Source: a virus. From it: 48,418 nt of DNA. Made by a program: the position numbers and the translations under genes. Position 1 is the first letter of the stretch; every line of letters begins with the position of its first letter. The notes under the pieces are model-generated. The model saw nothing but the letters and a program-made list of their open reading frames with translations, searched no databases and was not told where the DNA came from. This document shows, piece after piece, positions 9,362-42,774 of the stretch. The stretch is from IMG/VR virus record IMGVR_UViG_3300017748_000015, positions 1-48,418 of that record; one strand, 5' to 3'.

Positions 9362-10537
9362 TCACTTGAGGTCACGAATGCTCCCTTGTGCGCGGAAGAA
9401 GGTGGTCCAGACTTCGCCCATGGTCCTGAAGAGACCTTCCTGACCGAGACGGTTGATGGCGAAGGGGTCGCCGGTCTCGATACCGGACTCGAAGTATTGA
9501 GTCGGGATAGCCGTGGAGAAGTAGAGGTAATCCGTGTCAAGGAAATACATGCGGCTGATGCCGTCCTTCACGACGTCCTTGGAGGGAATGATGGGCACAC
9601 CGTTGTAGGTGGCGACGATGAACCCGGCTTCGATGCCGGGGACACCCTTGACACCGTTGTAGGTGGGGGTAACCCGCTTCTCTTCCATGAAGCGCTGCTG
9701 CGCCTGCAAGAGTTGCTGGAGTCGCATCAAGGTGTCGTAACCCGTCAGGATGACCTTGGGGTTGCCACCAAGTTCCCACATGCGCTGGAACACGTCGTCC
9801 AGTTGGTCGAGGGACATGACACGCTGGTTGCCCGCTGCACGGTCAGAACCGCAGTTGACCACAGCGTTGGACCATGAGTTGGCGTCACGGTCGATGCTGT
9901 AGATGTCGAGGTCTGATGCACCACAGTGGTCGGTTCCTGCAGAGGCACCGGTTTCCATGGAGGTGAGGCCACCGGAGGCGCCACCGTCGTTGCCGGTGAT
10001 GCGGTCGAGAGACTCGAAGTTGTTGCCTGCGACCGTCTCAGAGTCCGTGAGGAGCATCTTGTTGACCATCTCAGCGTGGTGCTTGCCCATTTCCTCCTTG
10101 AGGACTGAGCGCATGTCACCGAGGCCGTCGTCCTTGTCGGACAAGAAGACCGAGACTTCGCTCACGTCAAAGGTGTGCGCGATGGTCTTGGGCTTTGCAG
10201 CAACGTGCTGGAAGGTTGGCTTGACAGTTTCAGGCAGCGTGCCGTTTTCTGCAATTCCACCGTGGATAACACCTGCGTTTGGCTTATCCGTGATGACTCG
10301 CCATCCGCTGCGCTCCCATGGGCGCTTTGGAAGAATCGAGAAGGCGTTGAACTCTTGGTTGAGTTGACTCCACACCTTGCGTCCGTAGATGGCTTGGTAG
10401 GTCCCAGCCGTCGTGGACAGCATTGGGCTGTCAGCCTTCAAAAGTTCTGAGCCAGTGTATGAGTAGCCCATTGCATTGCCTGCGCCATAGTAGTAGCGCT
10501 CCATGTCAGTAACTGTGCGAACGTAGTTTCGTGCCAT
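9362..10537 (-). CDS. Major capsid protein, HK97 fold
   Basis: A 391-residue protein that would form the icosahedral shell. The start at 10537 follows an AAGGAGATGA Shine-Dalgarno sequence with good spacing, the strongest of the cluster. Features of the HK97 family: an N-terminal helical arm; a segment with PKRPWERSGWRV(I) and a lysine/proline-rich E-loop-like region (GTLPETVKPTFQHVAAKPKTIAHTFDVSE); a long spine helix region (DGLGDMRSVLKEEMGKHHAEMVNKMLL); and a C-terminal P-/A-domain region with TGYDTLMRLQQLLQAQQRF, followed by strand-rich VPIIPSKDVVKDG and YFLDTDYLYF. It lies directly after the protease-scaffold gene, and the order protease, capsid, decoration, adaptor, tail is canonical. 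The first residues MARNYVRTVTDMERYYYGAG are rich in Tyr/Arg. Confidence 0.85.
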   Translation of the reverse strand: MARNYVRTVTDMERYYYGAGNAMGYSYTGSELLKADSPMLSTTAGTYQAIYGRKVWSQLNQEFNAFSILPKRPWERSGWRVITDKPNAGVIHGGIAENGTLPETVKPTFQHVAAKPKTIAHTFDVSEVSVFLSDKDDGLGDMRSVLKEEMGKHHAEMVNKMLLTDSETVAGNNFESLDRITGNDGGASGGLTSMETGASAGTDHCGASDLDIYSIDRDANSWSNAVVNCGSDRAAGNQRVMSLDQLDDVFQRMWELGGNPKVILTGYDTLMRLQQLLQAQQRFMEEKRVTPTYNGVKGVPGIEAGFIVATYNGVPIIPSKDVVKDGISRMYFLDTDYLYFSTAIPTQYFESGIETGDPFAINRLGQEGLFRTMGEVWTTFFRAQGSIRDLK

Positions 10538-10578: not shown

Positions 10579-11412
10579 TCACTCGTCGCGGAACAGACCT
10601 CCGGCGAGTTGGTGAACCTCTTCCCACGACATGTTGGCGAGGTCAGCCGTAGAAGGCACCTCAACTGCGGGGGAAGCAGACTTTGCGATGGTCGTGGATT
10701 CCACGGAACCGATGTTGTCGATGCGCTCATTGAGGTCACCGAGGGCCTTCATGACCTTGTCAAGAGGGCCGCGAGCGTCAAACGCTTGAGCCTGAGCCTT
10801 GGTAATCTCTTCAGTGCGCTCGTTGGTGTAGCGCGACTCGAAGTTGTTCTCCATGGCCTTGCGCAGTTCTTCTTCCTGCTTGGCGGCCTTGAAGACTTCG
10901 TAAGCGTGCTCCACAGAGACAGAGTCGACGCTGGTGACGAAGTCAGACTTGCTGACTTTGCCACCGCTGGAAAGACCAGCGCGGGAAAGAGCGTTGGTGG
11001 ATGGGGAGCCGCCTTCTTGGGCGCGTCCCTTGACCTGAGCAGCGAAGCGAGTATCGTAGTCAGAGAGTTCCTCAGGCGTGGAGCCGAGGTTCGCCTTAGC
11101 GATACCATCGAAGTGGGCGCGAGCACCGTCAGTGTCCACACCAGCGGACTTGAGGGTGTGCTCCATCCAGTCGAGGTATTCGGCGGTGATGACATCGGAG
11201 AACTCGGACTTCTTCTTCTCGTCCTTCTTCTCCTCTTCGTCATCGGCCTTGTAGGCCTTCTCGGGCATGTCCTTCTTTTTCTCGGGCATGTCCTCTTCCT
11301 CTTTCTTATTCTTCTTCTCGAATTGAGGGGGCATTCCCTTTTCCATCGAGTCGAGGCGACCTTCAAGGCGCTCGAGCACTGTGTTCATTTGTTCCATAAC
11401 GTCGTCAGTCAT
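10579..11412 (-). CDS. Nested scaffold protein from an internal in-frame start
   Basis: Within the protease-scaffold gene, the ATG at 11412 (MTDDVMEQMNT...) is in frame and is preceded at 11418-11426 by AGGAGATGA. This is the same leader that precedes the capsid gene (10542-10550), with 5 bases between leader and ATG. The product would be 277 residues, lacking the protease domain: coiled-coil region, Lys/Glu-rich spacer and the C-terminal MSWEEVH motif. Lambda uses the same arrangement (protease gpC with nested scaffold Nu3). The evidence is the leader; protein evidence is absent. Confidence 0.5.
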   Translation of the reverse strand: MTDDVMEQMNTVLERLEGRLDSMEKGMPPQFEKKNKKEEEDMPEKKKDMPEKAYKADDEEEKKDEKKKSEFSDVITAEYLDWMEHTLKSAGVDTDGARAHFDGIAKANLGSTPEELSDYDTRFAAQVKGRAQEGGSPSTNALSRAGLSSGGKVSKSDFVTSVDSVSVEHAYEVFKAAKQEEELRKAMENNFESRYTNERTEEITKAQAQAFDARGPLDKVMKALGDLNERIDNIGSVESTTIAKSASPAVEVPSTADLANMSWEEVHQLAGGLFRDE

Positions 11413-11952
11413 TTTTTTCATCTCCTGTTTGTCTTCTTTCAGAATTTTGAATGTTGCTTCGGGGTTGATTCCTTTTTCGCAGATTGTGATTTCGTGAAGT
11501 TCGAGTTTGCTGATTTCTTGGTAGTTGCCGTGGCTGCTATCGTGTTTTCGAACTCGCTTGAATGCTTGTCCTCCGATGCTGAATCCCGCTAAGTTACCCT
11601 TCCTGACTTCGGCTGCCACTTCTCGTGCCTTTTCGATGTCATTTCTGAGTTGAACTACGACGAACATTCCGGCGTCATCAACTTCGCTCTTCCAAAACCT
11701 CCCTTCACTGTCTGTGTATTGCGGAACGACTTCCCCTACCTGAATGTTCGAGTGCGCGAGTTGCACATTTCGATATTTTGGGTCGGCCATGAACTTCTTG
11801 AAAGCGTCTTTCAAGGCCGAACGAGTAATCAAATCCCCCTGTTTGTCCACCAACTCGACACTGGCATAGCCTGCGACCACGAGGTCGTTGCTCCCTTTGA
11901 GGAGGGAGAGGCTGTCCGGCTGTCGGCTTCGGAGTAACACACTGTTCACCAC
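10579..11952 (-). CDS. Prohead protease fused to a scaffold domain
   Basis: A 457-residue protein with a GTG start at 11952 (GTG at 11949 is also possible). Residues about 1-170 are a HK97-type prohead protease: YASVELVDKQGDLITRSALKDAFKKF, the catalytic-type His in VQLAHSN, the Ser in GNLAGFSIGG, and HEITICEKGINPEATF at the end of the domain. The rest is a long charged helix with coiled-coil character and a Lys/Glu-rich spacer (residues about 220-250), then a scaffold-like C-terminal region. The last residues, LANMSWEEVHQLAGG, reappear in the small protein at 18270-18599. The capsid gene follows. The protein would cut the scaffold and capsid N-terminus during maturation. An internal start at 11412 probably makes a free scaffold. 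Confidence 0.8.
   Translation of the reverse strand: MVNSVLLRSRQPDSLSLLKGSNDLVVAGYASVELVDKQGDLITRSALKDAFKKFMADPKYRNVQLAHSNIQVGEVVPQYTDSEGRFWKSEVDDAGMFVVVQLRNDIEKAREVAAEVRKGNLAGFSIGGQAFKRVRKHDSSHGNYQEISKLELHEITICEKGINPEATFKILKEDKQEMKKMTDDVMEQMNTVLERLEGRLDSMEKGMPPQFEKKNKKEEEDMPEKKKDMPEKAYKADDEEEKKDEKKKSEFSDVITAEYLDWMEHTLKSAGVDTDGARAHFDGIAKANLGSTPEELSDYDTRFAAQVKGRAQEGGSPSTNALSRAGLSSGGKVSKSDFVTSVDSVSVEHAYEVFKAAKQEEELRKAMENNFESRYTNERTEEITKAQAQAFDARGPLDKVMKALGDLNERIDNIGSVESTTIAKSASPAVEVPSTADLANMSWEEVHQLAGGLFRDE
11418..11426 (-). promoter_or_regulatory. Internal Shine-Dalgarno sequence for nested scaffold
   Basis: The leader AGGAGATGA lies inside the protease gene, 5 bases before the in-frame ATG at 11412. 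It matches the leaders of the major capsid gene (10542-10550) and, nearly, of the gene at 8905-9327. A fully matching leader in the middle of a coding region is unlikely to be chance, although Lys/Glu-rich coding sequence is prone to produce GGAGA by itself. Confidence 0.5.
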
Positions 11953-11984: not shown

Positions 11985-14900
11985 TCAATCATTTTCCGAT
12001 TCTGCCTCATAAGAAGTAGACTGCGCTCCAGTTTTTTCCTTGAGCCTCTTGTTACGCGCTGCCGGGTATTCTTCCTCGGGGTCCTCTGTAGGTCGGTCAA
12101 TCATATCCCAATCAGGAAGCGACTCTTCAGACATCAGGCTTGTAGGACCACGCGGTGATTCGATACCCGAAGCAACGTCGATTCCCATACCACGTGCACC
12201 GGGACCGCCGGTCATCTTTTCCTTCTCAACTCGGTCTACGAGGTCAGCGATACGAAGCAACGTCTTCGTCATGACCTCCAAGCGCTTCGGTTTGATGATG
12301 GCTGCATCATCATCCGCATCAATGACGCCTGCAGATTCCTTCTCGGACTCTTCACGGTGCTTCGGGTCACTCATGCTGCGAGCCTCACTTTCGATAGCGA
12401 CCTTGACGCCCTTCAACATCAACGATGCAGCAGGTGACCACAGCGGACGCAGGCTCTCAGCCAGTAGCAACGAATACTCACTACCCTGCAGTTCACCAAG
12501 CGTTGACTTCGGTGAATGCGCCCATGTCCCATGTCGGTTAGTTTCCATCTTGTAGATGACCGTGTCCACTTCAGGGAACGAAAGAATGAGGCGGTCACTC
12601 TCAACATCAACTGAGAACTGAACAGGGATAACAGGGTGTGACTTGGTCAATAGAGACAGAGTTTCCAACGATGCTGGAGAATCGTCACTCTCACCGGCCA
12701 CCTTGGAAGCAGTAACATCGTAGATGGTCTTGTCGCCCCGCTTTCTTGAGCGGACACCTGACACAGACACATTGACCACATCGCCCTCATTGAACGGTTT
12801 CGGGCTGGTGACAGTGCCGACGTCAAGGAACGACTCCCCCTCGTGTTCGACTCCTCGATTACCGAACCCTTCAGCATCCAGTGGACCGGCACCCAGTCGA
12901 TAGGTGTAGGGTCCTTTACCCCGCACATCAAGAACAATGAGGCTGACCTTTTTGTCGGGACGGAGCAAGAACCACTTAGGATGACGTCGTTCCCCACGCA
13001 TGTAGGTAGACGTAGCATCGCGTAGAAGGATGCGATTTCCTGATTCTTTGAGACTCTCAATCACGTCAGGCAAACCCTCACTGTCGGTAAGGCGGAGGTT
13101 GTGCGGGCCGGGGACAATGACGTGCTCATGACTGTCGAACTGACCTCGCAGCACCTTCAACCGCTCACGGACGCTCATGTCAGCGACATTCGTGTCATCG
13201 TATTCGATGATGTCCACAAGGTGAATTTCATCATCGTGACGAACAGCATCGACAAGGAAGTTTTTCTCAGTGAGTGCTTTGAACTGCGTCTTATCTTCGG
13301 ATGAAAGTGAAACGTCACCTTCTGAATCATAGGCTGTCACGCGCCCGCTCTTACGTCGAACGATGAAGCGCTCTCCTTCAGGAAGCAGTGAAGCAGCCCA
13401 TTCTCCGCTGAAGCCGCGAAGCGAGGCGAAGTCCTTCAGCGAGAAGATGCGGTGCATCGGTAAGATAGGCATCGGCTTCTTCCCATCATTCTTCATCAGA
13501 ACATCAGGGTCCATCAAGGCCATCAACGATTTACCAATGCTATCGGGGTTGGTGTTTTCTGCTTGATAGTTGGTCGCAGGTGTAGCGGTGATGGCATTCG
13601 GCTGAGACTGAATAAGACCAACTCCACTAAGTGCGCTGTCGACCACATCCTTGCCATGCACGGCTTCGAGCATCGGTCGCTGAATCGAGTGCAGGTATTG
13701 TTCGTCAGGCATGTTGCTACCAGCGACAATGTTGTTACCGTCCCACTCAACGCCAACGGTAGGTTGCATCTTGTAGCCATGCTCCATAACGCCCGCAACA
13801 TAGTAATCACCGATGTTGTTTCCCTTTAGGGAGGCTGCAGGGTGAATCTGCTGACCGAGCCTACGCCCAATGACGTTTGCATCGGTCTTATTTTGGTCGA
13901 TTTGAGCGTCCATCAGTAACGCAGGGTCGATGACTGATGGATTGACTGTGATGATGTCGTGAAGCAACGATTTGATTTTCGCCTTGTCCTTACCTCTTTC
14001 CCTGACCTCTCCCATAGCGTGACGCGTCAGGCCGTATTTCCCAGCCTCATTCTGGTAACCTCCTCTAAAGAGGTGAGTGAAGGCTCCCAACCTATTGCTG
14101 TAATTCCTAAGGAAATCGCTAACGCTACCGCCCTCCTTTCGTCGTGACCCTGTCGTCTTACCTCGCCCTCCCTCTCGAGTCCCCTTCTTCCTCTCGCTCT
14201 CCTCGCTGCGATAGGCTTGAACTGCTGGGTTCTCAGCATATGCTTCATCGAAGGCTTTGATATGGTTGGTGTGATGTTCGTGAGAAAGTGAAATATCTTG
14301 ACCACGGGGGTGAAACTGCATACCTGTGCTAAGAGCAGTGCCTGAGGTCATGGCCCGAAGACCAGATTCAGGCACAGTGGCGCGGATTTTCTCAGCCTGC
14401 TTGTAGTGCTCTTGATAGTCAGGGTCATTCTTATCATGGTCAAAACCAAGCGCTTCCATAATTTGCTCAGTCGTCATGTCTTGCGTCAATTCAGCACCAT
14501 GATTCATGATGCTGCTCAAGATGTTGCGATGGGGGACAACCGTTTCCCCAGTCACCTTTGAAGCGATGGCGCTGGCTGACTCACGCTCCTCCGTGTCGAG
14601 ACTCCGCCCCCAAGTGGTCAAGCCGTGTTTATCATGAGGCATTAGCATCAGCATACGATTTGCATCATGATATAGGCGACTGGAGTTGGCAAGGAACTTC
14701 ACCTTGTTCGACGGGTCGAACGCCTCAGGGTCAACTTTCTCCATGATAGGTTTGATGCGTTGGGCCATGGTCTTGATGGCTTCAAGGTCACCACTCATTT
14801 TTTTGTCAAAGTTAGAGTGATGGAACTTCGCCGGTTTCCCAGTTTCAGTCATCCCTTCTACACTCTCAAGGTGCCTCACACGCTCAAGTGCGGCGAAGTA

Positions 14901-17441
14901 ACGCTCGCGCAGTTCGGCAGGCGCTCCCTCGTCTGAACCAGCGTATGTTGACATCAATGCCTCCAATTTTTCGGCTTGCATTGAGGCATCTTCCAAGTTT
15001 TCGAGGAACTCAGTCGTTGCTCGGACCGGTAATTCTTTGACACTCCTCCCACTCAATTTGTGAGTCATTGCGAAGGCTCGAGGGTTTCCTTGGTCGTGGC
15101 TTCGCGCTCTCGCCACACTCTCTTTTGGAGAGTCCAATTCGTCATGCCTAAGCATCTCTTTCTCAAAGGGCTCATGTGGAGGGTGGAGCCTTCCAAGACG
15201 TGAGGTCACGTTGTGTGTTAAGCGACTATTCTGAGCATAGCGAGTTTCAACACCATCAACTCCACCGGCCATAAGCGCGTTGTGCAAAGATGCAGGGTCA
15301 CTATCGAGACGCTCGGTGAAATCCTTTCCAAGAAGGTCAATCCGCTCTTCAGGGGTTAGAGCGCCGAGCATGTTGGCGAAGCCGGGGTCAAGTGTCGAGT
15401 GTCCAATCATTGGGGTGTTCTTCGTATTCCGACTCGCGAAACGCTGAGTCTTTCCTCGTTTCTGATGGTGAGAAGCGTCCCAAAACGACTGGGCTTGGGC
15501 GTGAGTGTCACCCTCACCATGAGTTCGAAAGCCCCTACTTGGTGGGACATATCGTCCAAAGAGGCCGACATTCTTTGATGAGGGCGTGAAGATACCGTCT
15601 CTACCGAGGCTCCCAATCAAACTCTTACCTTCAGCATCTTTGGGCATCCAGTCATGAAGAATTTCCAAACGAGCCAACGCGCTGCGTCCTGAACCTCCAC
15701 GAATGAATGGGAGGTGGAAGATGGCACCGTTTCCGACTGGGCCATGTGGCGTGCGCATCCACAAGTCAGCCTCATCTTCGGGAATGTGCTCCTCATGTGG
15801 GCCGTTGAAACCCAAGTGAGAGTAAGCATCAGCATGACGAACGCTCTTGTGCCTCAGCAAATTGCTGAAAGCAGCGCTCTTACCTCCCTCGAGTGCTTTC
15901 AAGTCATCAAGCGAAAGAGGGGCATCACTCTCACCAAAATGTCCCTTGCCAGTGAACGAGTAATTGCCTTCCTTATCCCTCTTGATACCAAGGAGGCGAT
16001 GGAGTGAGGACTCGTCAATACCTGCTCTTCCTCCACTTTCTACGTTGAACATGTTGGTAAGCGGCTCACTGCTACCGATGGCTTGCTCGGTCAAACCCTT
16101 CTTTCGTAGAAAATTCAAGTTGGATAGAACCACACCTTCGTCGGCGTGTTTTTCATTCAGTGCGTTGATGATGGCTTGCGCCATGGTGCCGTGTTCCTCA
16201 TGGGGTGTTTCATGAAGCGCATCGTGAAGAACTGAGTAATTGTGTGACTGAGGGTTGGCAACGTCACTTTCACTCTCAACGTGCTTCCTCTGGTTCTGCG
16301 ATGGGTAGATTTGCCCACGCATGGAATGAAGGAACTCAGGTGTGAAACGGTGAGCAATGTTACGCTTCACCCGACCGGCTGAAATGGTGCGACCGTCGCT
16401 CAATTTGATGTTCTGCACATCGTGAGCCTCTCCAGTGGACCCACGTTCCATGAGATGCTGCACGACGTTTTCCCGGTCTTCGGGCGACAGCCACTCAAGG
16501 CCGAGGTTGTAACCTCCCCAACCGAGAGATGTTCGCCGCCCGCCTTCACCCATCTCAGTGTTCACCCACCCTTGAATCGCATCGTCCATGTGGGCTTGAG
16601 CGATGGCGTAATCATGCTCGGCAGCGTTGGGGTATTGCTGAACAAGAGCATCCACTGTGCTGGAGTTGTTGCGCTTCCACTCCTCAAAGTTGTGAAGATA
16701 GAGGTCGTGGAGATGACTATCGTGTAGCGGGCCAGCAAAATGATGAGACGTATCTCCCCTCATCTTATCCTTGACTCCCGTGAAGTGCATGTTCCCCTTC
16801 TTGCTGTGATGGTCCTCTTGGAGAGATTCGTGGCGTTTGATTTGTTCAGCCAAGGAAACAGCGCCGGGGCGCGATGGCAAATAGAGTGCCTTAAGCGTCT
16901 CAAGATAAGCGGGCAAACCGCTGACGACGTTCTGCTGACGAAGAGGATGGTGCCTTGCCTGAAAGTGATGGTCGTCGGGGTAAAGACTACCTTGAGCAAA
17001 CTCGGCATCGGGGAACAACGACACGAAGTCGTGTAGATTGGATTCTTGGAAACGCCCCCTCCAATGATGGTCAGGGGCAAGGTCAGGAAGCCTACCAAAG
17101 GTCAGGTAGGTATCTTCGTCTTTTTCTCGACCCCTTTCTCGTAGCCGCTCTCGGTCGCTCTTTCCTTCAGCAGATGACTTTTCTCCATCTTCACCCTCGG
17201 CAGCCAATCGCTCAAACTCTTCAAGCGTCAGACGCTTACGAGCATTGTCGACTTCTTCCTTAGCAACGATGTCGCACAAGAAGTCATCAGGACCCTTGAG
17301 CACTTCAAAACCATGGTGGTCAAGGTTTTGCTTAGCGAGAATGAAGTTGGCGGCTGACTGCTCGTAATCGAGTTCGTCAAGAATTGACTTAAGAAGGTCA
17401 GAACGTGCTCTCAGATACCAATCTGTGGCCTCTTCTCGCAC
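11985..17441 (-). CDS. Giant virion-cluster protein (1,818 residues) with a degenerate ATP-dependent DNA ligase module
   Basis: The start is placed at GTG 17441 with a GGTGGT leader 6 bases upstream. The frame extends to 17636 but would then overlap the upstream gene by 182 bp. Residues about 1-1320 are His/Asp-rich, soluble and unrecognised. Residues about 1327-1590 follow the order of an ATP-dependent DNA ligase core plus OB fold. GERFIVRRKSGRVTAY corresponds to the strand after motif I; FLVDAVRHDDEIHLVDIIEY with SVRERLKVLR corresponds to motif III and the 'ylDlP.seR..lL' helix; ILLRDATSTYMRG..RHPKWFLLRP corresponds to motifs IV and V; a GxG strand region and 'VG.V....FNEGDVV.V.V' correspond to the OB fold. 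Catalytic residues are gone: the motif I KxDG position reads LPEG, motif IV Glu and Lys are Asn and Arg, and motif V Lys are Leu/Arg. It is therefore not an active ligase and may be a DNA-binding or structural protein. The C-terminus is a charged tail. Confidence 0.75.
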   Translation of the reverse strand: MREEATDWYLRARSDLLKSILDELDYEQSAANFILAKQNLDHHGFEVLKGPDDFLCDIVAKEEVDNARKRLTLEEFERLAAEGEDGEKSSAEGKSDRERLRERGREKDEDTYLTFGRLPDLAPDHHWRGRFQESNLHDFVSLFPDAEFAQGSLYPDDHHFQARHHPLRQQNVVSGLPAYLETLKALYLPSRPGAVSLAEQIKRHESLQEDHHSKKGNMHFTGVKDKMRGDTSHHFAGPLHDSHLHDLYLHNFEEWKRNNSSTVDALVQQYPNAAEHDYAIAQAHMDDAIQGWVNTEMGEGGRRTSLGWGGYNLGLEWLSPEDRENVVQHLMERGSTGEAHDVQNIKLSDGRTISAGRVKRNIAHRFTPEFLHSMRGQIYPSQNQRKHVESESDVANPQSHNYSVLHDALHETPHEEHGTMAQAIINALNEKHADEGVVLSNLNFLRKKGLTEQAIGSSEPLTNMFNVESGGRAGIDESSLHRLLGIKRDKEGNYSFTGKGHFGESDAPLSLDDLKALEGGKSAAFSNLLRHKSVRHADAYSHLGFNGPHEEHIPEDEADLWMRTPHGPVGNGAIFHLPFIRGGSGRSALARLEILHDWMPKDAEGKSLIGSLGRDGIFTPSSKNVGLFGRYVPPSRGFRTHGEGDTHAQAQSFWDASHHQKRGKTQRFASRNTKNTPMIGHSTLDPGFANMLGALTPEERIDLLGKDFTERLDSDPASLHNALMAGGVDGVETRYAQNSRLTHNVTSRLGRLHPPHEPFEKEMLRHDELDSPKESVARARSHDQGNPRAFAMTHKLSGRSVKELPVRATTEFLENLEDASMQAEKLEALMSTYAGSDEGAPAELRERYFAALERVRHLESVEGMTETGKPAKFHHSNFDKKMSGDLEAIKTMAQRIKPIMEKVDPEAFDPSNKVKFLANSSRLYHDANRMLMLMPHDKHGLTTWGRSLDTEERESASAIASKVTGETVVPHRNILSSIMNHGAELTQDMTTEQIMEALGFDHDKNDPDYQEHYKQAEKIRATVPESGLRAMTSGTALSTGMQFHPRGQDISLSHEHHTNHIKAFDEAYAENPAVQAYRSEESERKKGTREGGRGKTTGSRRKEGGSVSDFLRNYSNRLGAFTHLFRGGYQNEAGKYGLTRHAMGEVRERGKDKAKIKSLLHDIITVNPSVIDPALLMDAQIDQNKTDANVIGRRLGQQIHPAASLKGNNIGDYYVAGVMEHGYKMQPTVGVEWDGNNIVAGSNMPDEQYLHSIQRPMLEAVHGKDVVDSALSGVGLIQSQPNAITATPATNYQAENTNPDSIGKSLMALMDPDVLMKNDGKKPMPILPMHRIFSLKDFASLRGFSGEWAASLLPEGERFIVRRKSGRVTAYDSEGDVSLSSEDKTQFKALTEKNFLVDAVRHDDEIHLVDIIEYDDTNVADMSVRERLKVLRGQFDSHEHVIVPGPHNLRLTDSEGLPDVIESLKESGNRILLRDATSTYMRGERRHPKWFLLRPDKKVSLIVLDVRGKGPYTYRLGAGPLDAEGFGNRGVEHEGESFLDVGTVTSPKPFNEGDVVNVSVSGVRSRKRGDKTIYDVTASKVAGESDDSPASLETLSLLTKSHPVIPVQFSVDVESDRLILSFPEVDTVIYKMETNRHGTWAHSPKSTLGELQGSEYSLLLAESLRPLWSPAASLMLKGVKVAIESEARSMSDPKHREESEKESAGVIDADDDAAIIKPKRLEVMTKTLLRIADLVDRVEKEKMTGGPGARGMGIDVASGIESPRGPTSLMSEESLPDWDMIDRPTEDPEEEYPAARNKRLKEKTGAQSTSYEAESEND

Positions 17442-17454
17442 ATTCACACCACCT

Positions 17455-18273
17455 TCAGTATTGGTTGCGCATGTAGTCTTGTGGGTTCTGACGGTCGCGG
17501 CTTGCTCCCTCACCAACTCCAGTGGTGCCCTCAAGACCGGGGCACTCATCGCCGAAGCCGAAGCGGCAGCCAGTAAATTGGTTTCCACCGCACTGTTCAC
17601 ACATTGCCTTAGCGACTGCATCATTGGCTCCAGCAAGAGCCTCTACGGCTGCCTTGGTCAACGACCCATTCTCAACTTGACGGGGGACACTGTCATGATG
17701 GGGGTTCATCTGCTGACCGAGTGTCTCAAAGTTGACTGACTCGGACGAGGAGCCTTTGTTCGTAACATCCTCAGCGTGGTAGGGATATTGATTGGTGGTG
17801 TAGTAGGCGTTGCGTGTCTGACCACCGCTCTCAGCCATGAACATCACACCAGCAGGCTTGGAGTCAAAGGATGTGGTGAAACCGGGTTGCGCTCCCTCCT
17901 CGAAGGATTTCTGCATTTTCGCACCGCACCCCATCTTCATGCAAGCGCCCTTTTCCATCTTAGCGCCACACTCAGGGCAATCCTCGCCCTTCTGCATTTT
18001 TGCACCACAACCCATCTTCATGCAACTGCCCTTGTTCATGGCCTCGCCGCATTCAGGGCACTTTTCGCAATCGCGACAAGATTCGCCCTTCTTGCAGTCG
18101 CACTTGGCCTTTGCTTTCATGTCCTTCGCGCCCTTGCCGTCAGCGGCAAAAGACGGGACTTTCTTGCCCTCATGCTCAACCATGTCTATTTTTTCCGCTT
18201 TTTCAAGCAGACGCTGTGCCTTGCTCAGCAAATTCAGCGCATCTCTACCGTATGGAGATGGGATGGGTCTCAC
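17455..18273 (-). CDS. Cysteine-repeat zinc-binding-like protein
   Basis: A 272-residue protein starting at GTG 18273 and overlapping the upstream stop as GTGA. Residues about 60-125 contain a cysteine-rich stretch: CDCKKGESCRDCEKC, then CPECGEAMNKGSCMKMGCGAKM and CPECGAKMEKGACMKMGCGAKM. The two CPECG...CMKMGCGAKM units are close tandem copies. A further CEQCGG..TGC..GFGDEC occurs at residues about 220-245. These resemble zinc ribbons or metal-binding knuckles. The N-terminus (ALNLLSKAQRLLEKAEKI) is a helix. It lies between the giant gene and small head genes downstream of portal. The function is unknown, perhaps a head-internal or portal-associated protein. Confidence 0.7.
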   Translation of the reverse strand: MRPIPSPYGRDALNLLSKAQRLLEKAEKIDMVEHEGKKVPSFAADGKGAKDMKAKAKCDCKKGESCRDCEKCPECGEAMNKGSCMKMGCGAKMQKGEDCPECGAKMEKGACMKMGCGAKMQKSFEEGAQPGFTTSFDSKPAGVMFMAESGGQTRNAYYTTNQYPYHAEDVTNKGSSSESVNFETLGQQMNPHHDSVPRQVENGSLTKAAVEALAGANDAVAKAMCEQCGGNQFTGCRFGFGDECPGLEGTTGVGEGASRDRQNPQDYMRNQY

Positions 18274-18599
18274 GCAATCACCTCAGTGCTCTTGGCTTGT
18301 GCAGCCATGTCGTGAATTTCATCCCAAGTCATCTGATGAATCTGAGAGTTGGAGAAGTTGTCATGTCCCTTGATGATGGCGTCGTCATTCGCACGGAATG
18401 CATCGGCTTCAACACCATCGGTCAACGGCGTGGAGGATGAAACGAAGCCTGCTTTGCGAAGCATGGAAACTGGGTCGCGAATGGCTTTCCGAAGCATGGC
18501 GTTCTCGTGCTTCAGAGATTGCAGGTCAGTGTCCATGGTTTCCATCTTCGAGATGAGAGTGGTCATCAAACGCTCGGTTACAGACATGTCTTCAGTCAT
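18270..18599 (-). CDS. Small coiled-coil head protein sharing a C-terminal motif with the scaffold
   Basis: A 109-residue protein. Residues 1-45 (MTEDMSVTERLMTTLISKMETMDTD...) form an amphipathic coiled coil (LKHENAMLRKAIRD). The C-terminus SQIHQMTWDEIHDMAAQAKS matches the C-terminus of the protease-scaffold (LANMSWEEVHQLAGG): both have M[ST]W[DE]E[VI]H with the same spacing to a hydrophobic-Ala pair. Scaffold C-termini bind the capsid protein in several phages, so this protein could enter the prohead by the same contact. It lies between the portal region and the Cys-repeat gene. The role is inference. Confidence 0.65.
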   Translation of the reverse strand: MTEDMSVTERLMTTLISKMETMDTDLQSLKHENAMLRKAIRDPVSMLRKAGFVSSSTPLTDGVEADAFRANDDAIIKGHDNFSNSQIHQMTWDEIHDMAAQAKSTEVIA

Positions 18600-18608
18600 A
18601 GGTTCACC

Positions 18609-18962
18609 TCAGGAATCAGGGACAAAGCGCCCGAACGTTCCACGGTGGACACTCATGCTGCGATTGGTGCGAGCGGCGATGACGGTGCCGGGAAGGACCG
18701 AGTCACGCTGACTCACATCGAAATTCTGTCCGCTCGTGTTCATCTTGTGAAGCATGGGGTTAGGGACATTCAAGTCGACCGTTTCACGTTGACTCTTCAC
18801 AACAGCGCTGTGAATGTCTTCGGAGAGATAGCCTGCAAACTTGATGACCTCATTGATGTGGCTTTGCGCTTCACCTGCATCGCCGCTTTCGAGTGCTTTC
18901 ACAAAAGCCTCGCTATGTAGTGCCATTTTCCGAGCCATTGGGTCCATCTTCAGTAGGTCCAT
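18609..18962 (-). CDS. Small protein downstream of portal, unknown
   Basis: A 117-residue protein (MDLLKMDPMARKMALHSEAFVKALE...), helical in its N-terminal 70 residues and then a loop-rich part containing NTSGQNFDVSQRDSVLPGTV and NRSMSVHRGTFGRFVPDS. It contains no Cys or membrane segments. It is the first gene after the portal in the transcribed direction. I see no known motif. A portal- or capsid-associated role is suggested by position only. Confidence 0.6.
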   Translation of the reverse strand: MDLLKMDPMARKMALHSEAFVKALESGDAGEAQSHINEVIKFAGYLSEDIHSAVVKSQRETVDLNVPNPMLHKMNTSGQNFDVSQRDSVLPGTVIAARTNRSMSVHRGTFGRFVPDS

Positions 18963-19006: not shown

Positions 19007-20713
19007 TTACTGCCCTCGTGGCATACGAGCGTCCAAGAGTGCGTCACTATTCTGCTGCGGCAATCCCGGCTGAGGGCCGCGCTGCTGAACGCTCGACATA
19101 GGTGAGCCTGCGCCTACTGAGGCGCGTGCTTGAGGGCGTGCTGGGCTACGAGGTGTGCGAATGCCCATACCCTCACCACCGGGTTGCGATGGAGGCATTG
19201 GTGGACGCTGACCACCGGCAACTTGAGGAGGCATACCCATCATCGGAGGTTGACCGGGCATCTGTTGTGCCGCCCCAGCCGTTTCCTCGCCTCCCGGCTG
19301 TTTGCGGTAGACAAAGCGGATGTCACGGTCACCTTCTTCAAGCAACTCCGGCTTGTAGCCAAGCATTGCCATACGCTGCGCAAGGTTGACTTCCATCTCG
19401 TCGCGCCGCAGACGAGTGATTTCGTCTTCTTCTTCGTTGGGGTAGAGTGTCAATTTCCAATCGGTGATGTCCATCTCACGCAACATACGCGGGAACAGAT
19501 TGTCTGTGTAGACTTTCTGACCAAACTCAACGGCGCGGTTGGTCACAAGAATCTGCAAACCCTCATTGTTGAGCCCGCCGGACTTACCGTTGTCAATCAT
19601 GAAGATGCTCGAGACACCATAGAAGGCAGCGATACGGTTACGAATCTCGTCACGCACAGCAATGTATTGCATCTCTTCCAGCGTGTCCATGAACTTGACC
19701 CAGTTGACCCCACCACGACCCGAAGAAGATTCGATACCAACCTTGGGGACGTAGTGTGGGTCGCGCTCCATTTTCTCGTCAACGGACTTCCAGAATGACT
19801 TCATTGACTCGAGGTTGTCCGTCGTAACTGAGATGATGCCCTTAGGGGTGCGACGCTTTTGGTAAGCAGTGTAGATGTAATTGTCCATAGCGGTGAGGCT
19901 CATCGCTTGACGCCACATCGTATTGACCGGGCTTCGCCCGTAGAGTTTGGAAGGGTTATACTTGCTGAGATGGATGACCTCACCCTTGGTGAAATACTGA
20001 TTCTTCCCGCTCCCCGCCATGTTGACATAATGAGCGTCAACCATGCGAGAGCCGCAGACTTGGCAATTGCCCTCTTGACCCGGATAAGCCACTTGGTCCC
20101 GGTGGAGTCGGCAAATCTTGTAACGCCCTCCGCGAACACCTCGCTTGTCTGCGATGATGCGCATGAAAATGGGGTCACCACGCACGATGTCCTTAACGCG
20201 ATAGAAGGCGATTTCTCCCGTCTCAGGGTCAACATAGTATTCCTTGATGAGGAGCATGAATGCATCATCGACGATGTTCAGGTCGTTTTCAATTTCACCC
20301 AACACCTGCATGAACGTCTGTTCCATAGCGTTCTCCTGACCGAGAAGCCACTTGGGGTAAATGACCTGCTCAGGGTCAGGCGCACGCACCTCACCACCGC
20401 AAGACTTGCACATGTCGACGTCGTGCTGGAACTCTTCTTCACACTCAGTGCACTTCTTTCGAAACTTCTTCTCCCAGTGATAGCCACGTCGAAAAATTTC
20501 CTGACGGAGTTTGGATTGCACAGTCCGTAGAATAAGATTCTCTTGACTCACAGCATAGAGCGCGGGCAATGTGATACCTTGCGCGAGAACTGGTTCCTGA
20601 ATGCCGGTCGTGTAGAGCGGCATCTGGGGCTGAGGCGTTGTGCGTCGGCGAAACGGACTCGCCAAAGCCGAGAGAAAACGACTGACTGGACCTCGCTCTT
20701 CTTCCGGCATCAC
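19007..20713 (-). CDS. Portal protein with two inserted zinc knuckles
   Basis: A 568-residue protein that would form the dodecameric DNA-entry vertex. It shows the portal order: an N-terminal clip/wing region (RGPVSRFLSALASPFRRR..), a central helical/beta part with VYPKWLLGQENAMEQ, DDAFMLLIKEYYVD, HLSKYNPSKLYGRSPVNTMWRQA, and YTAYQKRRTPKGIISV. This is followed by a helix-rich C-terminal portion with RNRIAAFYGVSSIFMIDNGKSGG. Two insertions are rich in Cys: residues about 86-107 (CTECEEEFQHDVDMCKSCGG) and about 200-220 (CRLHRDQVAYPGQEGNCQVCGS), both four-ligand zinc ribbons. The C-terminal tail is Pro/Gly/Gln-rich. The GTG start at 20713 overlaps the preceding stop; ATG at 20710 is the alternative. 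It sits between terminase and the protease-scaffold, as usual. Confidence 0.85.
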   Translation of the reverse strand: MMPEEERGPVSRFLSALASPFRRRTTPQPQMPLYTTGIQEPVLAQGITLPALYAVSQENLILRTVQSKLRQEIFRRGYHWEKKFRKKCTECEEEFQHDVDMCKSCGGEVRAPDPEQVIYPKWLLGQENAMEQTFMQVLGEIENDLNIVDDAFMLLIKEYYVDPETGEIAFYRVKDIVRGDPIFMRIIADKRGVRGGRYKICRLHRDQVAYPGQEGNCQVCGSRMVDAHYVNMAGSGKNQYFTKGEVIHLSKYNPSKLYGRSPVNTMWRQAMSLTAMDNYIYTAYQKRRTPKGIISVTTDNLESMKSFWKSVDEKMERDPHYVPKVGIESSSGRGGVNWVKFMDTLEEMQYIAVRDEIRNRIAAFYGVSSIFMIDNGKSGGLNNEGLQILVTNRAVEFGQKVYTDNLFPRMLREMDITDWKLTLYPNEEEDEITRLRRDEMEVNLAQRMAMLGYKPELLEEGDRDIRFVYRKQPGGEETAGAAQQMPGQPPMMGMPPQVAGGQRPPMPPSQPGGEGMGIRTPRSPARPQARASVGAGSPMSSVQQRGPQPGLPQQNSDALLDARMPRGQ

Positions 20714-21936
20714 AGACCCTCCGCATACTTGCCGATGGTATCAGCGTCGACGCCCCACGAGTTAAGCAGTTCGGACGCCTTCTTCGAGTCATCTTCCCAA
20801 TTCTTGAAACGCACCAAACGCTTCAATTCTTCTTTTCTCACGGGGTCGCTCTCATCAATGAAAGCCAACACCGCTTTTGCTTGCATGCCTTTCATTTTGA
20901 GATGAGGCATCACACCAGTCAAGAATTTACGAAGGTCTGCCTTAGAATAGAATTGCAGCCTATGTTGGCTGCGAGTTGAGTTCTTGTGGACTTTGTTGTT
21001 CAATTGCAGCACGCCACAGTCCATCGTTTTGTAGAGGTCTTCACAGTGGACTCGCCCGCGCTCTCCCGTAGCAATCATTCCAGCACGAGGCTCTCCTCGC
21101 TCAGTGATGGTGATGTAACCGTCAGCGTCAAGGAAACCAGCACCGTAGGCCCACACGTCCTTGAGAACAAGACCGTCGTTGGCAACGCGAACGTAGGAGC
21201 CGCGTTCTGCGCCCTTGATGATGTCAAATTCTTCCCCATACATGTTGAGGAGAGTCGTGAACTTTCGAGTAGTGAAGGACTTGCGAAGCAAACCTGCTTC
21301 ATTCATGTTGTCCTGTAGAATGCTAACACGCATTGGTCCCTTCTTCAGTTCTTCAGCGACGAACTCAAGATATCCACTCTCAGCCTTGGAGAGTTTGTCA
21401 GCATGAAACAGCGCTGTGCGCCACATTTTACGAGCGTCGCTACGGTCACGCATCGCATTGGCCCATGCTTGTTGTTCTTCAACACCCCACACATCTTCGT
21501 GCTCGTCAAGCATCTTCATGGTAACCTCAGCCTTATCCCACAATTGACAAGCCTGCTGCAGCGAGATTGACCTCGCCTCACCGAACTGCCGCAAGTGTTT
21601 GAGTGACCGGTCAGATAGACCGAGGCCCTTGATGCAATGCTCCACGCCATTAGCCCACGACAGATTGCGAATGGTCAGTTCAGTTTCGAGTGCCTTGATG
21701 GTGCGAACGTCGTCAATGAAGAGGTCGATATCACTGCTGCTGTTCTTGTTATGGCGTCGCGCTTTACGCAGACGTTTAACCAACTGACCTGCCGTGCAAT
21801 TCATCTTAGACTCGAACCACCCGTCACCATTGGGTGCGAAGCGGTAAGTCTTGCGAATGGCTTCAACAACCTCCTCTTGGTAAGGCTGCTCGGCCTTGAT
21901 GACAAAGTCATCTTCAATCAATGCAGACCCCCACAT
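20710..21936 (-). CDS. LAGLIDADG endonuclease-like protein with a long N-terminal extension
   Basis: A 408-residue protein. Residues about 273-300 (AYGAGFLDADGYITITERG) contain a GAGFLDADG motif that matches the LAGLIDADG helix plus the following beta hairpin. The subsequent stretch (GRVHCEDLYKTMDCGVLQL...SKADLRKFLTGVMPHLKMKG.QAKAVLAFI) is typical of the family fold. Only one clear DADG motif is visible, so it could act as a homodimer or have lost activity. The N-terminal 260 residues are unrelated (WFESKMNCTAGQLVKRLRKARRHNKNS and helical segments). It lies between two genes of the head module without disturbing overlaps, so it is a freestanding gene, not an intein. It may cut DNA of rivals lacking the gene, but its N-terminal extension is odd. 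Confidence 0.75.
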   Translation of the reverse strand: MWGSALIEDDFVIKAEQPYQEEVVEAIRKTYRFAPNGDGWFESKMNCTAGQLVKRLRKARRHNKNSSSDIDLFIDDVRTIKALETELTIRNLSWANGVEHCIKGLGLSDRSLKHLRQFGEARSISLQQACQLWDKAEVTMKMLDEHEDVWGVEEQQAWANAMRDRSDARKMWRTALFHADKLSKAESGYLEFVAEELKKGPMRVSILQDNMNEAGLLRKSFTTRKFTTLLNMYGEEFDIIKGAERGSYVRVANDGLVLKDVWAYGAGFLDADGYITITERGEPRAGMIATGERGRVHCEDLYKTMDCGVLQLNNKVHKNSTRSQHRLQFYSKADLRKFLTGVMPHLKMKGMQAKAVLAFIDESDPVRKEELKRLVRFKNWEDDSKKASELLNSWGVDADTIGKYAEGL

Positions 21937-22458: not shown

Positions 22459-22637
22459 TTCTTTTTCCCACCCTTCTTGCCACGGAATTTCCCCTTGCAG
22501 TATTGCACAGCCCAGCCGTTTGCATAGGCTGAGGGGTAGACCTTGAACTTCCTCTTGGCTGCTGCTTTCCCTGCGGGGCACAACTTCTTGCGTAGGTCGT
22601 CAAAACAGATGTCAAACGGGTCGCTCAACAATTCCAC
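22455..22637 (-). CDS. Small basic protein with a KFKVYPSAYAN motif
   Basis: A 60-residue protein starting at GTG 22637, overlapping the preceding stop by 13 bp. It reads ...CPAGKAAAKRKFKVYPSAYANGWAVQYCKGKFRGKKGG. The GKAAAKRKFKVYPSAYAN...CKGK pattern is a widespread signature in small marine phage and giant virus proteins that I recognise but whose function is not clear. Lys/Gly-rich tail. The order of three such basic proteins is 22625-23572, 22455-22637, 21959-22273, all between terminase and endonuclease. They could be packaged with the DNA. Confidence 0.65.
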   Translation of the reverse strand: MELLSDPFDICFDDLRKKLCPAGKAAAKRKFKVYPSAYANGWAVQYCKGKFRGKKGGKKK

Positions 22638-23572
22638 CTTCTCAGTGCAGCACCTTTCGGTGTGAGTTTGCCCTTCTTGGACGTTGGTCCCTTCATGCCA
22701 CCCATGCGAGCGCAGAACGATTTGCGACGCTTGGCTTTCTTGGAGCCGGGTTTGAGTTTGCTCGGTTTGGTAGTAACAGGTGGCTTAAGGTTCGCTCCAG
22801 TCTCGCGCTTGGCTTTTGCACGACCCTTAGCGTTCAACCCACCCTTCTTGTGATGGCGATTCGGATTATAACCGTGAAAGGGCTTGGACTTCTTCTTGGC
22901 TTTCGCGATGGCCCAAGCAATTTCACTGGGTGTGCAACACGAGCAAAAATCGACTGCTGCACCCTTCTGCAACGCATCAAGTGCTTCGAGGTTGTCGAGT
23001 GCCCGTTGCACCATGTCTTGGTCAGCAAAGAACCGTGTTGGGTCTTCGGCGCGAAGCGCCTGCAATTGTTCCTGCCCTTCAGACTCCATGGCTTCGGCGC
23101 GTCCCTTTTGTCGCTCCATCTGAGACATGACCTTCATGAAACGTCGACGAGCGCTGGGGTCGTAGAGACTCGGATTGATACGCATGTCTTGGTAATCTGC
23201 GCCTCGCTTACCCTCACCGTAGAGGAAGCGAGCAAAAGCCTCACGGTCATCTTCATCATCACCCAGCAATTGAGATGCTTCAGTCCCAAGTCGCTCGATG
23301 GTTGACTCCCTAAGTGCAGGGCCCCTCTCCATTTGAGAAGCAACATCAGCAAAGCGTCGAGCATGACCCTTCTCACCGGCTCCGCGCATTCGCTCGGCTT
23401 CCCCCATGAGTTCAGCCGGAGTGGCTTTGGATAAGAAGGCAGGAGGATTGCGCTCAGCCTTCTCTTTCGTATCAGGGTCAGCAGCACGCATGGGACTCTT
23501 GTCTGACGGCTTGCCGATTGAGATGACGAGCACTGCGCCTTTGGGCTTCTTTCCAACTTTCTCTTCTTTCAT
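22625..23572 (-). CDS. Protein with C-terminal RKSFCARM motif, adjacent to terminase
   Basis: A 315-residue protein. The start at 23572 overlaps the terminase stop as ATGA; a longer frame to 23617 runs into the terminase gene. The N-terminus includes GAVLVISIGKPSDKSPMRA and helical acidic segments with RFADVASQMERGP. A central CSCCTPSEIAWAIAKAKKKSKPF combines Cys with a copy of the 'xxAWxxxK' tag (IAWAIAK). The C-terminal 60 residues are Lys/Arg-rich and include KAKRRKSFCARMGGMKGP and KGKLTPKGAALRRWNC, which is the pattern of a common marine-phage basic protein (KSFCARMxGM..). Its position after the terminase suggests a packaging or head-internal role. Function is unknown. Confidence 0.65.
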   Translation of the reverse strand: MKEEKVGKKPKGAVLVISIGKPSDKSPMRAADPDTKEKAERNPPAFLSKATPAELMGEAERMRGAGEKGHARRFADVASQMERGPALRESTIERLGTEASQLLGDDEDDREAFARFLYGEGKRGADYQDMRINPSLYDPSARRRFMKVMSQMERQKGRAEAMESEGQEQLQALRAEDPTRFFADQDMVQRALDNLEALDALQKGAAVDFCSCCTPSEIAWAIAKAKKKSKPFHGYNPNRHHKKGGLNAKGRAKAKRETGANLKPPVTTKPSKLKPGSKKAKRRKSFCARMGGMKGPTSKKGKLTPKGAALRRWNC

Positions 23573-25056
23573 GGTATCATCCATCCATCTTTCTTGCGGG
23601 GCTTGCCCGTCAACCACTCGTCGAATCCGGGCATGAAGTCATCCAACATAATGACACTGCCCCTGAACTCCTTGGTCGCCCAATTAGCAAGAGCGAGGCT
23701 CATGGCGAGGTCATCGTGAACACCGACGCTTTCGAGGCGTCCGCTCTTTTGCATACCAAAACGAGTCAACTCCTCTTCGAGTTTGTGCGTGAAACGCTTG
23801 GAGCGGTCATCGCCGTAGGGCGTTTTGATTTGGCCCTGCTCAAACGCCATGAGCAGCGACATGAAGAGGCTCTCCTTACGGGTGCGCGTAGTCATGAAGG
23901 TGCGAATCGGAATGTCTTGACGGATGTCTTGCAGTTCCATGGCAAACATCCGCTGGAAGTTGTTACCCTCAAGTTCGATGAGGTCAGGCTGAAACTTGTT
24001 GTTGAGGATGATGATGGCACGCTTCTGCGCTGCAGACCCCATACCCTGCTCGTGCACAATACCAACGATTTGCTTGATGTCCTCATCAGGCAACGTGCGC
24101 AAGACAGTCATGGCCGTGTAGTCAGCGTTCTTGTCCGATGCGATGGCCGTGTCCCAACCCACGAAGTGATGACCAAGAACACCGACGCGGTCACCGTTCT
24201 CATCGTATTCACTGTCGGCTACATCCAAGAGTTTCAGATTATGGTCGCGTGCCTTCTCAAGGAGTGCCATTGGGAACATGCTGGCAACGTCGTGAATCGG
24301 TTCACACAGATATTCGCGTGTGAATTGAATGGCAGGCATCGTCATACGCCGTTGGTCGAGAGACTCAAGGTCCCAGCGCTCAGGCCACAACGCTTCACCT
24401 TCACGATTGATGGCAGGGTAAGTTTCCACTTGGAAGGTCTCAGTCTTCTCAAGTTGAGCATACAAGTCGTTGTAACTGAAAGGTGTGCCGACCATCATCA
24501 GACGACCGGTGTGGTGGAGCACAGGGAGTAGAACACCGTAGAACCAGTCTGCTGCACGCTGTAATTCAGACCCAGTAGTGCCCCACAAAATGTCGTCACA
24601 GAGAACAACATCAGGGTGGAATCCACGAGTTCCCCCGCCGACGGACTTTGCCATGATACGGCTACCGTTGGTGAACTCAAAGTAGGTCTTGCGCCACGGT
24701 TTGCCCGAAGGAATCAGTTCCTTTAGGCACGGCGAGTTCTGAATGTTCTGTCGAATGAAACGCATGTGCTCGAGCGTCTGTTCCAACGAGTGAGAGAAAA
24801 TCATGATGTGCGTGCCGGGTTTGAATGCCGCAATCCACAGCGCGTAAGACATGAAGAACACGGACTTGCCATGGTCGCGACTTGCTTTCACGCAATAGTA
24901 GCGGTTGTCGCTCAACCCCTTATCCCACATGCCGTGATGGTCGGCGTAGTCGAACCCTAACACCGTCTCAAAGAAGTATTTGAAAGAGCGAGTGGACATC
25001 TTCTTGTCCATCTCAAGGACAAGTGTCTGCATTTCAGCGGACTTGTCACTCCCCAC
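23569..25056 (-). CDS. Terminase large subunit
   Basis: A 495-residue ATPase-nuclease that would pump DNA into the prohead through the portal. Residues 57-65 (KASRDHGKS) form a Walker A of the terminase type, and residues 148-155 (DVVLCDDI) a Walker B with acidic pair 153/154. HIMIFSHSLEQTLEHMRFIR and the GGTRGFHPDVVL stretch are typical of the ATPase core. The nuclease domain begins near GHHFVGWDTAIASDKNADYTAMTV (an Asp in VGWDTA), continues with FQPDLIELEGNNFQRMF and ends with the acidic pair in VGVHDDLAMSLALA. Motif I has HG in place of the usual Q/A-GKS. The start at 25056 overlaps the upstream gene by 11 bp; ATG 25032 (MQTLVLEM) is an alternative. Confidence 0.9.
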   Translation of the reverse strand: MGSDKSAEMQTLVLEMDKKMSTRSFKYFFETVLGFDYADHHGMWDKGLSDNRYYCVKASRDHGKSVFFMSYALWIAAFKPGTHIMIFSHSLEQTLEHMRFIRQNIQNSPCLKELIPSGKPWRKTYFEFTNGSRIMAKSVGGGTRGFHPDVVLCDDILWGTTGSELQRAADWFYGVLLPVLHHTGRLMMVGTPFSYNDLYAQLEKTETFQVETYPAINREGEALWPERWDLESLDQRRMTMPAIQFTREYLCEPIHDVASMFPMALLEKARDHNLKLLDVADSEYDENGDRVGVLGHHFVGWDTAIASDKNADYTAMTVLRTLPDEDIKQIVGIVHEQGMGSAAQKRAIIILNNKFQPDLIELEGNNFQRMFAMELQDIRQDIPIRTFMTTRTRKESLFMSLLMAFEQGQIKTPYGDDRSKRFTHKLEEELTRFGMQKSGRLESVGVHDDLAMSLALANWATKEFRGSVIMLDDFMPGFDEWLTGKPRKKDGWMIP

Positions 25057-42157: not shown

Positions 42158-42180
42158 GCTCACGCACAAAGGCCACCCGG

Positions 42181-42186
42181 ATTTCA
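42181..42186 (-). promoter_or_regulatory. Candidate TATA-like box of the 41057-42157 gene
   Basis: TGAAAT on the minus strand, centre 26.5 bp from ATG 42157; its match to the others is weaker. Further upstream is an A-rich tract (42219-42245) that could also serve as promoter DNA. Confidence 0.35.
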
Positions 42187-42268
42187 AGCCATTGTCAATC
42201 TTAGGTAGCGAAGCAGGTAGAATTGTTTTTTTGTTGAAATTTTTGTGGAAAGGTGTGCGTGGTCATAA

Positions 42269-42602: not shown

Positions 42603-42648
42603 TCGCTCGTCACAGCGTTAAGCCGCATCCCCTTCTGCCCGATGACCC

Positions 42649-42664: not shown

Positions 42665-42749
42665 TTTGTGCCACCCTCCTTCGGACGTAGCACGACCGGC
42701 GTAGCATACGCATCGAGCACCCCAAAGCGTTGACTGAGAGCCTTCCATA

Positions 42750-42755: not shown

Positions 42756-42774
42756 GCACCATCATAGAGAAGGG

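What the first reader, a model, noticed from the sequence alone, without database searches (positions are those of the whole stretch)
12680..13460. A dead DNA ligase fold inside a 1,818-residue virion-cluster protein
Seen: in one protein, in the right order, are GERFIVRRKSGRVTAY, FLVDAVRHDDEIHLVDIIEY followed by SVRERLKVLR, ILLRDATSTYMRG, KWFLLRP and then an OB-fold-like stretch. Known: ATP-dependent DNA ligases (with RNA ligases and capping enzymes) have motif I KxDG, III (DGE), IV (EGxxxK) and V (WxKxK), then an OB fold. Here the catalytic Lys position reads LPEG, the motif III DGE reads DAV, motif IV Glu/Lys are Asn/Arg and motif V Lys are Leu/Arg. Inference: a pseudo-ligase used to hold DNA ends or nicks, or as an ejected protein that acts on host DNA. 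I know no such precedent, although I cannot search.
Basis: partly seen in the sequence, partly recalled or inferred. Interest (0 to 1): 0.88.

Follow-up and report, generated by a model that had tools for sequence, protein, structure and literature searches.

The report
Dead DNA ligase in viral head-gene protein
A group of marine viruses related to archaeal tailed viruses carries, inside one huge protein encoded among its head genes, a DNA ligase fold that is highly conserved but has lost its catalytic residues, so the DNA-joining fold seems to have been reused for something else, most likely gripping DNA.

Summary
Every quoted motif is in the ORF at the stated place. Residues 1385-1702 give a confident AlphaFold model (pLDDT 86). 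Of the 50 listed Foldseek PDB matches, 48 are ATP-dependent DNA ligases (archaeal ones first) and two are mRNA capping enzymes; matches span nucleotidyltransferase and OB domains. Pfam DNA_ligase_A_M is matched by 69 of 69 relatives, a 69-member profile hits a Thermococcus ligase (E 2.6e-6), and profile comparison with archaeal ligases gives 96% probability.
Among 111 distinct relatives none has Lys at the catalytic position (always W/Y/L/F/M). Motif III Glu, the first motif V Lys and motif VI are also lost. Fold and DNA-facing residues (KxDGxR Arg, S-T-Y, Trp) are invariant, and the module is the best-conserved part of the protein. The gene is syntenic (portal, three ORFs, giant, protease, capsid) and present in every locus long enough to show it. 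Near-complete relatives encode no other recognisable ligase.
The role (DNA grip, assembly scaffold, or ejected factor) is inferred; virion presence is untested. I found no published natural DNA pseudo-ligase in a virus.

The parts
11985..17441 (-). Giant late-cluster protein, 1,818 aa from GTG at 17441 (ORF open to TTG at 17636, 1,883 aa); residue numbers here follow the 1,883-aa reading
   Evidence: full-length homologues of about 1,800-2,040 aa in many IMG/VR contigs
13443..13463 (-). LPMHRIF, equivalent of the ligase pre-motif PMLA; P 110/111, M, H and R 111/111
   Evidence: hhalign aligns it with PIkPMLA of archaeal ligases; column counts
12957..13463 (-). Degenerate nucleotidyltransferase (adenylation) domain, residues 1392-1560
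13368..13385 (-). Motif I position: LPEGER instead of KxDGxR; catalytic Lys is Leu here, W/Y/L/F/M in 111 relatives; Arg invariant
13242..13250 (-). Motif III position: DAV instead of DGE; Glu replaced in 111/111 (I/V/M/T/A/L)
13206..13223 (-). Motif IIIa position HLVDII (canonical aromatic-D-x-L); Asp kept in 109/111, aromatic mostly lost (F in 13/111)
13017..13037 (-). Motif IV position: NRILLRD instead of EGxxxK; Arg in 106/111, Lys in 4; following Asp 111/111
12957..12977 (-). Motif V position: KWFLLRP instead of xWxKxK; Trp 111/111, first Lys never, second Lys is Arg in 105/111
12645..12956 (-). OB-fold domain, residues 1561-1664; motif VI RxDK replaced (GESDDSP; Lys position E/D in 108/111)
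   Evidence: AlphaFold secondary structure and Foldseek span; weak Phage_SSB OB-family match; motif VI assignment by eye with column counts
11988..12644 (-). Conserved C-terminal tail including GIESPRGPTSL..ESLPDWDMIDRPTEDPEEEY, function unknown
10579..11952 (-). Prohead (S78/XkdF-type) maturation protease, directly downstream
   Evidence: Pfam Peptidase_S78 1e-9, PHROG head maturation protease; synteny
9362..10537 (-). Major capsid protein, HK97-type
   Evidence: PHROG 24667 7.9e-59; 34% to HVTV-1 capsid protein
19007..20713 (-). Portal protein, upstream
   Evidence: PHROG 18178 8.6e-63, Pfam Phage_portal
17455..18962 (-). Three conserved ORFs of unknown function between portal and giant protein (117, 109, 272 aa)
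   Evidence: conserved in order in the relatives; no Pfam or PHROG match

Best explanation
Residues about 1392-1664 of the giant protein are a pseudo-DNA-ligase: the nucleotidyltransferase and OB domains of an ATP-dependent, archaeal-type DNA ligase whose catalytic site was lost before the common ancestor of the sampled viruses and whose fold has since been kept under strong constraint (shown by sequence, family profile and predicted fold). Inferred step: because the residues that face DNA in true ligases are the ones kept (Arg of KxDGxR, the S-T-Y..G..R segment, Trp of motif V) while those that bind and transfer AMP are lost, the module most likely binds duplex DNA (an end, a nick, or the packaged strand at the portal) without joining it, as part of a large head or portal-proximal protein made with the late genes. 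Estimated probabilities: ligase descent and inactivity 0.93; DNA-binding role within the head 0.45.
For: Fold: model of residues 1385-1702, pLDDT 86.4, pTM 0.73. Of the 50 listed PDB matches 48 are ATP-dependent DNA ligases, led by archaeal ones (4eq5 E 3.7e-11; A. fulgidus closed form 3gde TM 0.58 over 353 columns), covering NTase and OB; the last two are mRNA capping enzymes. Sequence: 69-member profile against PDB 4eq5 2.6e-6, 3rr5 3.4e-4; PF01068 in 69/69 members; hhalign against 15 archaeal ligases 96.1%, 3.3e-9, in register at the PMLA, KxDG and W motifs. Inactivity: 111 members, no Lys at motif I, no Glu at motif III, no first motif V Lys; motif VI lost. Constraint: mean column identity 0.56 in the module against 0.25 in the N-terminal 1,319 residues; synonymous sites mostly saturated while dN is 0.05-0.30 in NTase and OB. 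Universality: 75 of 80 capsid-anchored loci carry it, the other five being too short upstream. Synteny portal-ORFs-giant-protease-capsid. Kept DNA-facing residues; their roles are from general knowledge of ligase structures. Precedent that a catalytically dead ligase is structurally useful: inactive LIG4 promotes end joining (PMC9638927, PMC10858965; titles and abstracts seen).
Against: No DNA-binding experiment; invariant residues could be kept for folding or protein contacts. The helical DNA-binding domain that precedes NTase in archaeal ligases is not detected (no PF04675). Virion presence rests on gene order only. The AlphaFold alignment is of one viral family, and TM-scores with true ligases are moderate (0.4-0.6).
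Confidence: 0.55

Rival explanations
1. The pseudo-ligase is a protein-interaction scaffold: the two-domain fold is kept as a platform for the portal, protease or capsid protein during head assembly, and does not bind DNA.
For: Strict gene order with portal, protease and capsid; the most conserved stretches (LPMHRIF, STYMRGERRHPKW, TYRLGAGP) and the conserved C-terminal tail are longer than a ligase's DNA contacts would need.
Against: The kept residues coincide with those that face DNA in true ligases; the OB domain also weakly resembles a phage single-stranded-DNA-binding family (best 1.6e-4).
Confidence: 0.25
2. It is an ejected protein that enters the host with the genome and covers genome ends or nicks, or competes with host ligase on DNA.
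For: In the sister haloviruses HVTV-1, HCTV-1 and HCTV-5 the same slot between portal and protease holds a Mu gpF-like gene and giant proteins with zeta-toxin kinase and, in HVTV-1, ADP-ribosyltransferase domains; phage head proteins of the MuF type are known to carry toxin domains (PMC3482391).
Against: No sequence relation between the two giant proteins; no MuF domain found here; the module is uniform across the group rather than varied, unlike effector cargo.
Confidence: 0.15
3. It still binds a nucleotide or cap, or transfers one by a shifted chemistry, with the Lys that lies one residue upstream in most relatives.
For: 66 of 111 relatives read KWYDG, KYYEG or similar; the profile also touches the snurportin m3G-cap-binding domain, a non-catalytic relative of capping enzymes.
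Against: The window has no Lys at either position; motif III Glu, first motif V Lys and motif VI Lys are missing in all or nearly all members; the upstream Lys changes state at least twice on the tree.
Confidence: 0.07
4. The resemblance is a chance motif pattern in an unrelated fold.
For: Single-sequence Pfam scores of the window protein are below the curated cut-off.
Against: Independent profile, fold and register evidence.
Confidence: 0.02

Closest known systems
Archaeal ATP-dependent DNA ligases (Thermococcus 4eq5 and 3rr5, Pyrococcus 2cfm, Archaeoglobus 3gde)
   Same: Order and spacing of PMLA, motif I, motif III/IIIa, motif IV, S-x-Y..G, W motif, then OB domain; predicted fold over both domains
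   Different: All catalytic residues replaced, no detectable N-terminal DNA-binding domain, embedded towards the C-terminus of a 1,818-aa late viral protein
Snurportin-1 m3G-cap-binding domain
   Same: A non-catalytic member of the nucleotidyltransferase superfamily; weakly matched by 25 of 69 members
   Different: Eukaryotic RNA-cap receptor without the ligase OB pair; matches are weak (E 0.003 at best)
Engineered catalytically dead DNA ligase IV
   Same: Shows that a ligase can have a structural, end-holding role without catalysis (PMC9638927, PMC10858965)
   Different: A mutant of an active enzyme, not a natural family; not viral
Giant zeta-toxin/ADP-ribosyltransferase proteins of Druskaviridae (HVTV-1 gp115, HCTV-1 gene 109)
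   Same: Same genomic slot between portal and protease, similar size class
   Different: No detectable sequence relation; different enzymatic domains

Membership tests
ATP-dependent DNA ligase (functional enzyme) | Nucleotidyltransferase plus OB-fold core in this order | tested here: met
   AlphaFold model pLDDT 86 and Foldseek PDB matches over both domains
ATP-dependent DNA ligase (functional enzyme) | Motif I KxDG with catalytic Lys | tested here: not met
   LPEG in the window; 0 of 111 relatives have Lys there
ATP-dependent DNA ligase (functional enzyme) | Motif III Glu, motif IV Glu/Lys, motif V two Lys | tested here: not met
   Motif III Glu 0/111; motif IV Lys 4/111 and Glu 16/111; motif V first Lys 0/111, second 1/111
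ATP-dependent DNA ligase (functional enzyme) | Motif VI RxDK in the OB domain | tested here: not met
   Positions assigned by eye; Lys position E/D in 108 of 111, Arg position E in 89
ATP-dependent DNA ligase (functional enzyme) | N-terminal helical DNA-binding domain as in archaeal ligases | tested here: not met
   No PF04675 match in the whole protein at E<1; a diverged domain cannot be excluded
ATP-dependent DNA ligase superfamily by descent (Pfam PF01068) | Curated Pfam gathering score | tested here: inconclusive
   Window below cut-off; 7 of 14 relatives' genomes above it; 69 of 69 members match at E<=0.1
Virion (head) structural protein | Present in purified particles | not testable with these tools
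   Only conserved gene order with portal, protease and capsid gene
MuF-type ejected toxin protein | MuF (PF04233) domain fused to effector | tested here: not met
   No PF04233 match in 19 full-length members
Magrovirales, Aoguangviridae-like virus | PolB, PCNA, MCM and ATP-dependent DNA ligase in the genome (PMC10768690) | tested here: not met
   PolB present in 8 of 8, but no PCNA_N, no MCM and no ligase besides this protein in the contigs tested

The most novel reading that the evidence does not exclude
A whole group of marine archaeal-type tailed viruses has turned a DNA ligase into a non-catalytic DNA-gripping part of the head or portal machinery, a natural DNA pseudo-ligase that handles the genome ends or the packaged strand.
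Probability: 0.4. Interest if true: 0.82.

Novelty: new variant of a known kind. Interest (0 to 1): 0.68.

Why it matters
Natural pseudo-enzymes are known for many families, but I found no report of a natural DNA pseudo-ligase (library limited to open-licence papers). Here one is a near-universal, best-conserved module of a giant late protein in a widespread marine virus group with at least 504 capsid relatives in IMG/VR. It offers a system to separate DNA gripping from catalysis in ligases and points to an unknown step in archaeal virus head assembly or DNA delivery. It also warns that 'DNA ligase' annotations in such viruses may refer to this inactive protein.

Tried and rejected
Homology of the giant protein to the giant zeta-toxin proteins and to gp113 of Druskaviridae: hhalign 0.2-0.3%, rejected. 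Homologues among 50,697 phage records: none. Homologues in genome contigs: none confirmed. Known domains in the N-terminal 1,319 residues: none credible in Pfam or PHROGs; a PDB match to a 115-aa Gp7 at E 0.05 is treated as chance. Duplicate of the virus's own active ligase: rejected, none is encoded in the long contigs. First AlphaFold run with 27 sequences was of low confidence (pLDDT 59), although it found the same ligases. dN/dS ratios could mostly not be computed because synonymous sites are saturated. Snurportin-like cap binding was considered and kept only as a minor rival. Philosof et al. 2017 and Prabhu et al. 2025 could not be read, nor could the reference magrovirus genomes.

Full report
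What was checked. The finding places ligase-like motifs in a long minus-strand ORF. The ORF runs 17636..11985 (1,883 aa from TTG). The 1,818-aa length quoted corresponds to GTG at 17441 (VREE...), and conservation among relatives begins there. All quoted motifs are present, in order, at the stated coordinates.

Is it a ligase fold? Single-sequence methods give only weak but consistent hints: PF01068 at residues 1469-1555, 13 bits against a cut-off of 26.2; the only PDB hit of the region is the Thermococcus sibiricus ligase 4eq5 at E 0.034; NCBIfam ligase models at 0.003-0.02. With relatives the case becomes strong. 27 of 27 and then 69 of 69 members match PF01068, 7 of 14 relatives' genomes exceed the curated score, a 69-member profile reaches 4eq5 at 2.6e-6, and hhalign with 15 true archaeal ligases gives 96.1% and E 3.3e-9 with PMLA, KxDG and W motifs in register.

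The second AlphaFold model (69 sequences, residues 1385-1702) has pLDDT 86.4 and pTM 0.73. Of the fifty PDB matches listed, 48 are ATP-dependent DNA ligases, archaeal first, over about 350 columns spanning both domains; the last two are mRNA capping enzymes, a related family. TM-scores are moderate (0.58 with 4eq5 and with the closed A. fulgidus ligase), as expected for a two-domain hinge and 15-20% identity.

Is it dead? In 111 distinct sequences the catalytic Lys position is W 69, Y 17, L 12, F 12, M 1. Motif III Glu is never present; motif IV Lys is Arg in 106; the first motif V Lys is always L/V/M/I and the second is Arg in 105. The motif VI Lys position is acidic in 108 (positions assigned by eye). 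In contrast the Arg of KxDGxR, the S, Y and G of STYxxG, the Asp after motif IV and the Trp of motif V are invariant, and the motif III Asp is kept in 110. In 66 of 111 a Lys lies one residue upstream (KWYDG); with the other motifs gone this does not look like a working site, and the tree needs two changes for that state. No member with KxDG was found.

Is it functional in some way? The module is the best-conserved part of the protein (0.56 mean column identity against 0.25 for the N-terminal 1,319 residues), with low dN while synonymous sites are mostly saturated. It is present in 75 of 80 loci fetched through the capsid gene; the five exceptions do not reach far enough upstream. The order portal, 117-aa, 109-aa, 272-aa ORF, giant, protease, capsid is kept in the relatives inspected.

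The virus. Capsid and portal are nearest, among annotated records, to Druskaviridae (HVTV-1, 34% capsid identity) and to a methanogen-associated virus. In contigs of 87-108 kb I found no NAD-dependent ligase (eight contigs), no RNA ligase, PCNA or MCM (ten contigs); PF01068 is matched only by this protein (in one contig, G021, no match passed the E-value limit). PolB is present in eight of eight tested and one contig has a TFB-like gene. I therefore call it a marine relative of archaeal tailed viruses; assignment to Magrovirales is possible but not shown. A published account says that almost all magroviruses encode a DNA ligase (PMC10160649); whether some of those are this inactive protein could not be checked.

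Role. Shown (by sequence and predicted fold): ligase ancestry, family-wide loss of catalytic residues, strong constraint, late-cluster position. Inferred: DNA gripping in the head or at the portal. The scaffold rival is not excluded. An ejected role gains some weight because the same slot in haloviruses holds giant proteins with zeta-toxin and ADP-ribosyltransferase domains, but these are not detectably homologous. Dead LIG4 is a precedent for a structural ligase. A literature search found no natural viral DNA pseudo-ligase, within an open-licence library only.

Verdict. Observation confirmed; interpretation of the fold and of its inactivity supported; function open. New variant of a known kind (a pseudo-enzyme of the ligase superfamily in a new setting).

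Noticed in passing
L059 2146-10480, L225 3491-12961, L226 3646-13376 (HVTV-1, HCTV-5, HCTV-1): The slot between portal and protease in Druskaviridae holds Mu gpF-like, ADP-ribosyltransferase and giant zeta-toxin genes; HVTV-1 gp115 has both a zeta-toxin kinase and a C-terminal ADP-ribosyltransferase exoenzyme domain that the record does not name.
   Followed up: partly
Contigs behind L010, L024, L031, L036, L045, L141, L174, L186, L198, L106: Near-complete 95-108 kb relatives (PolB found in all that were tested for it) show no recognisable DNA ligase other than the dead one, nor PCNA or MCM, so published 'DNA ligase' annotations in such viruses may need checking.
   Followed up: partly
window 19007-20713: The portal protein has a weak zinc-ribbon match (residues 80-109, best E 0.015), unusual for a portal.
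   Followed up: no
window 11988-12200: The last 60 or so residues of the giant protein (GIESPRGPTSL..ESLPDWDMIDRPTEDPEEEY) are strongly conserved across the family and match nothing known.
   Followed up: no
window 42001-47490: G+C rises to 0.65 at 42-44 kb, near the switch from the minus-strand late cluster to a plus-strand SNF2-type helicase (44812-47490).
   Followed up: no
   Followed up: no
window 22625-23617 and 20710-21936: A DUF6321 protein next to the terminase (23569-25056) and an HNH-endonuclease-like protein next to the portal, the latter conserved in relatives.
   Followed up: no
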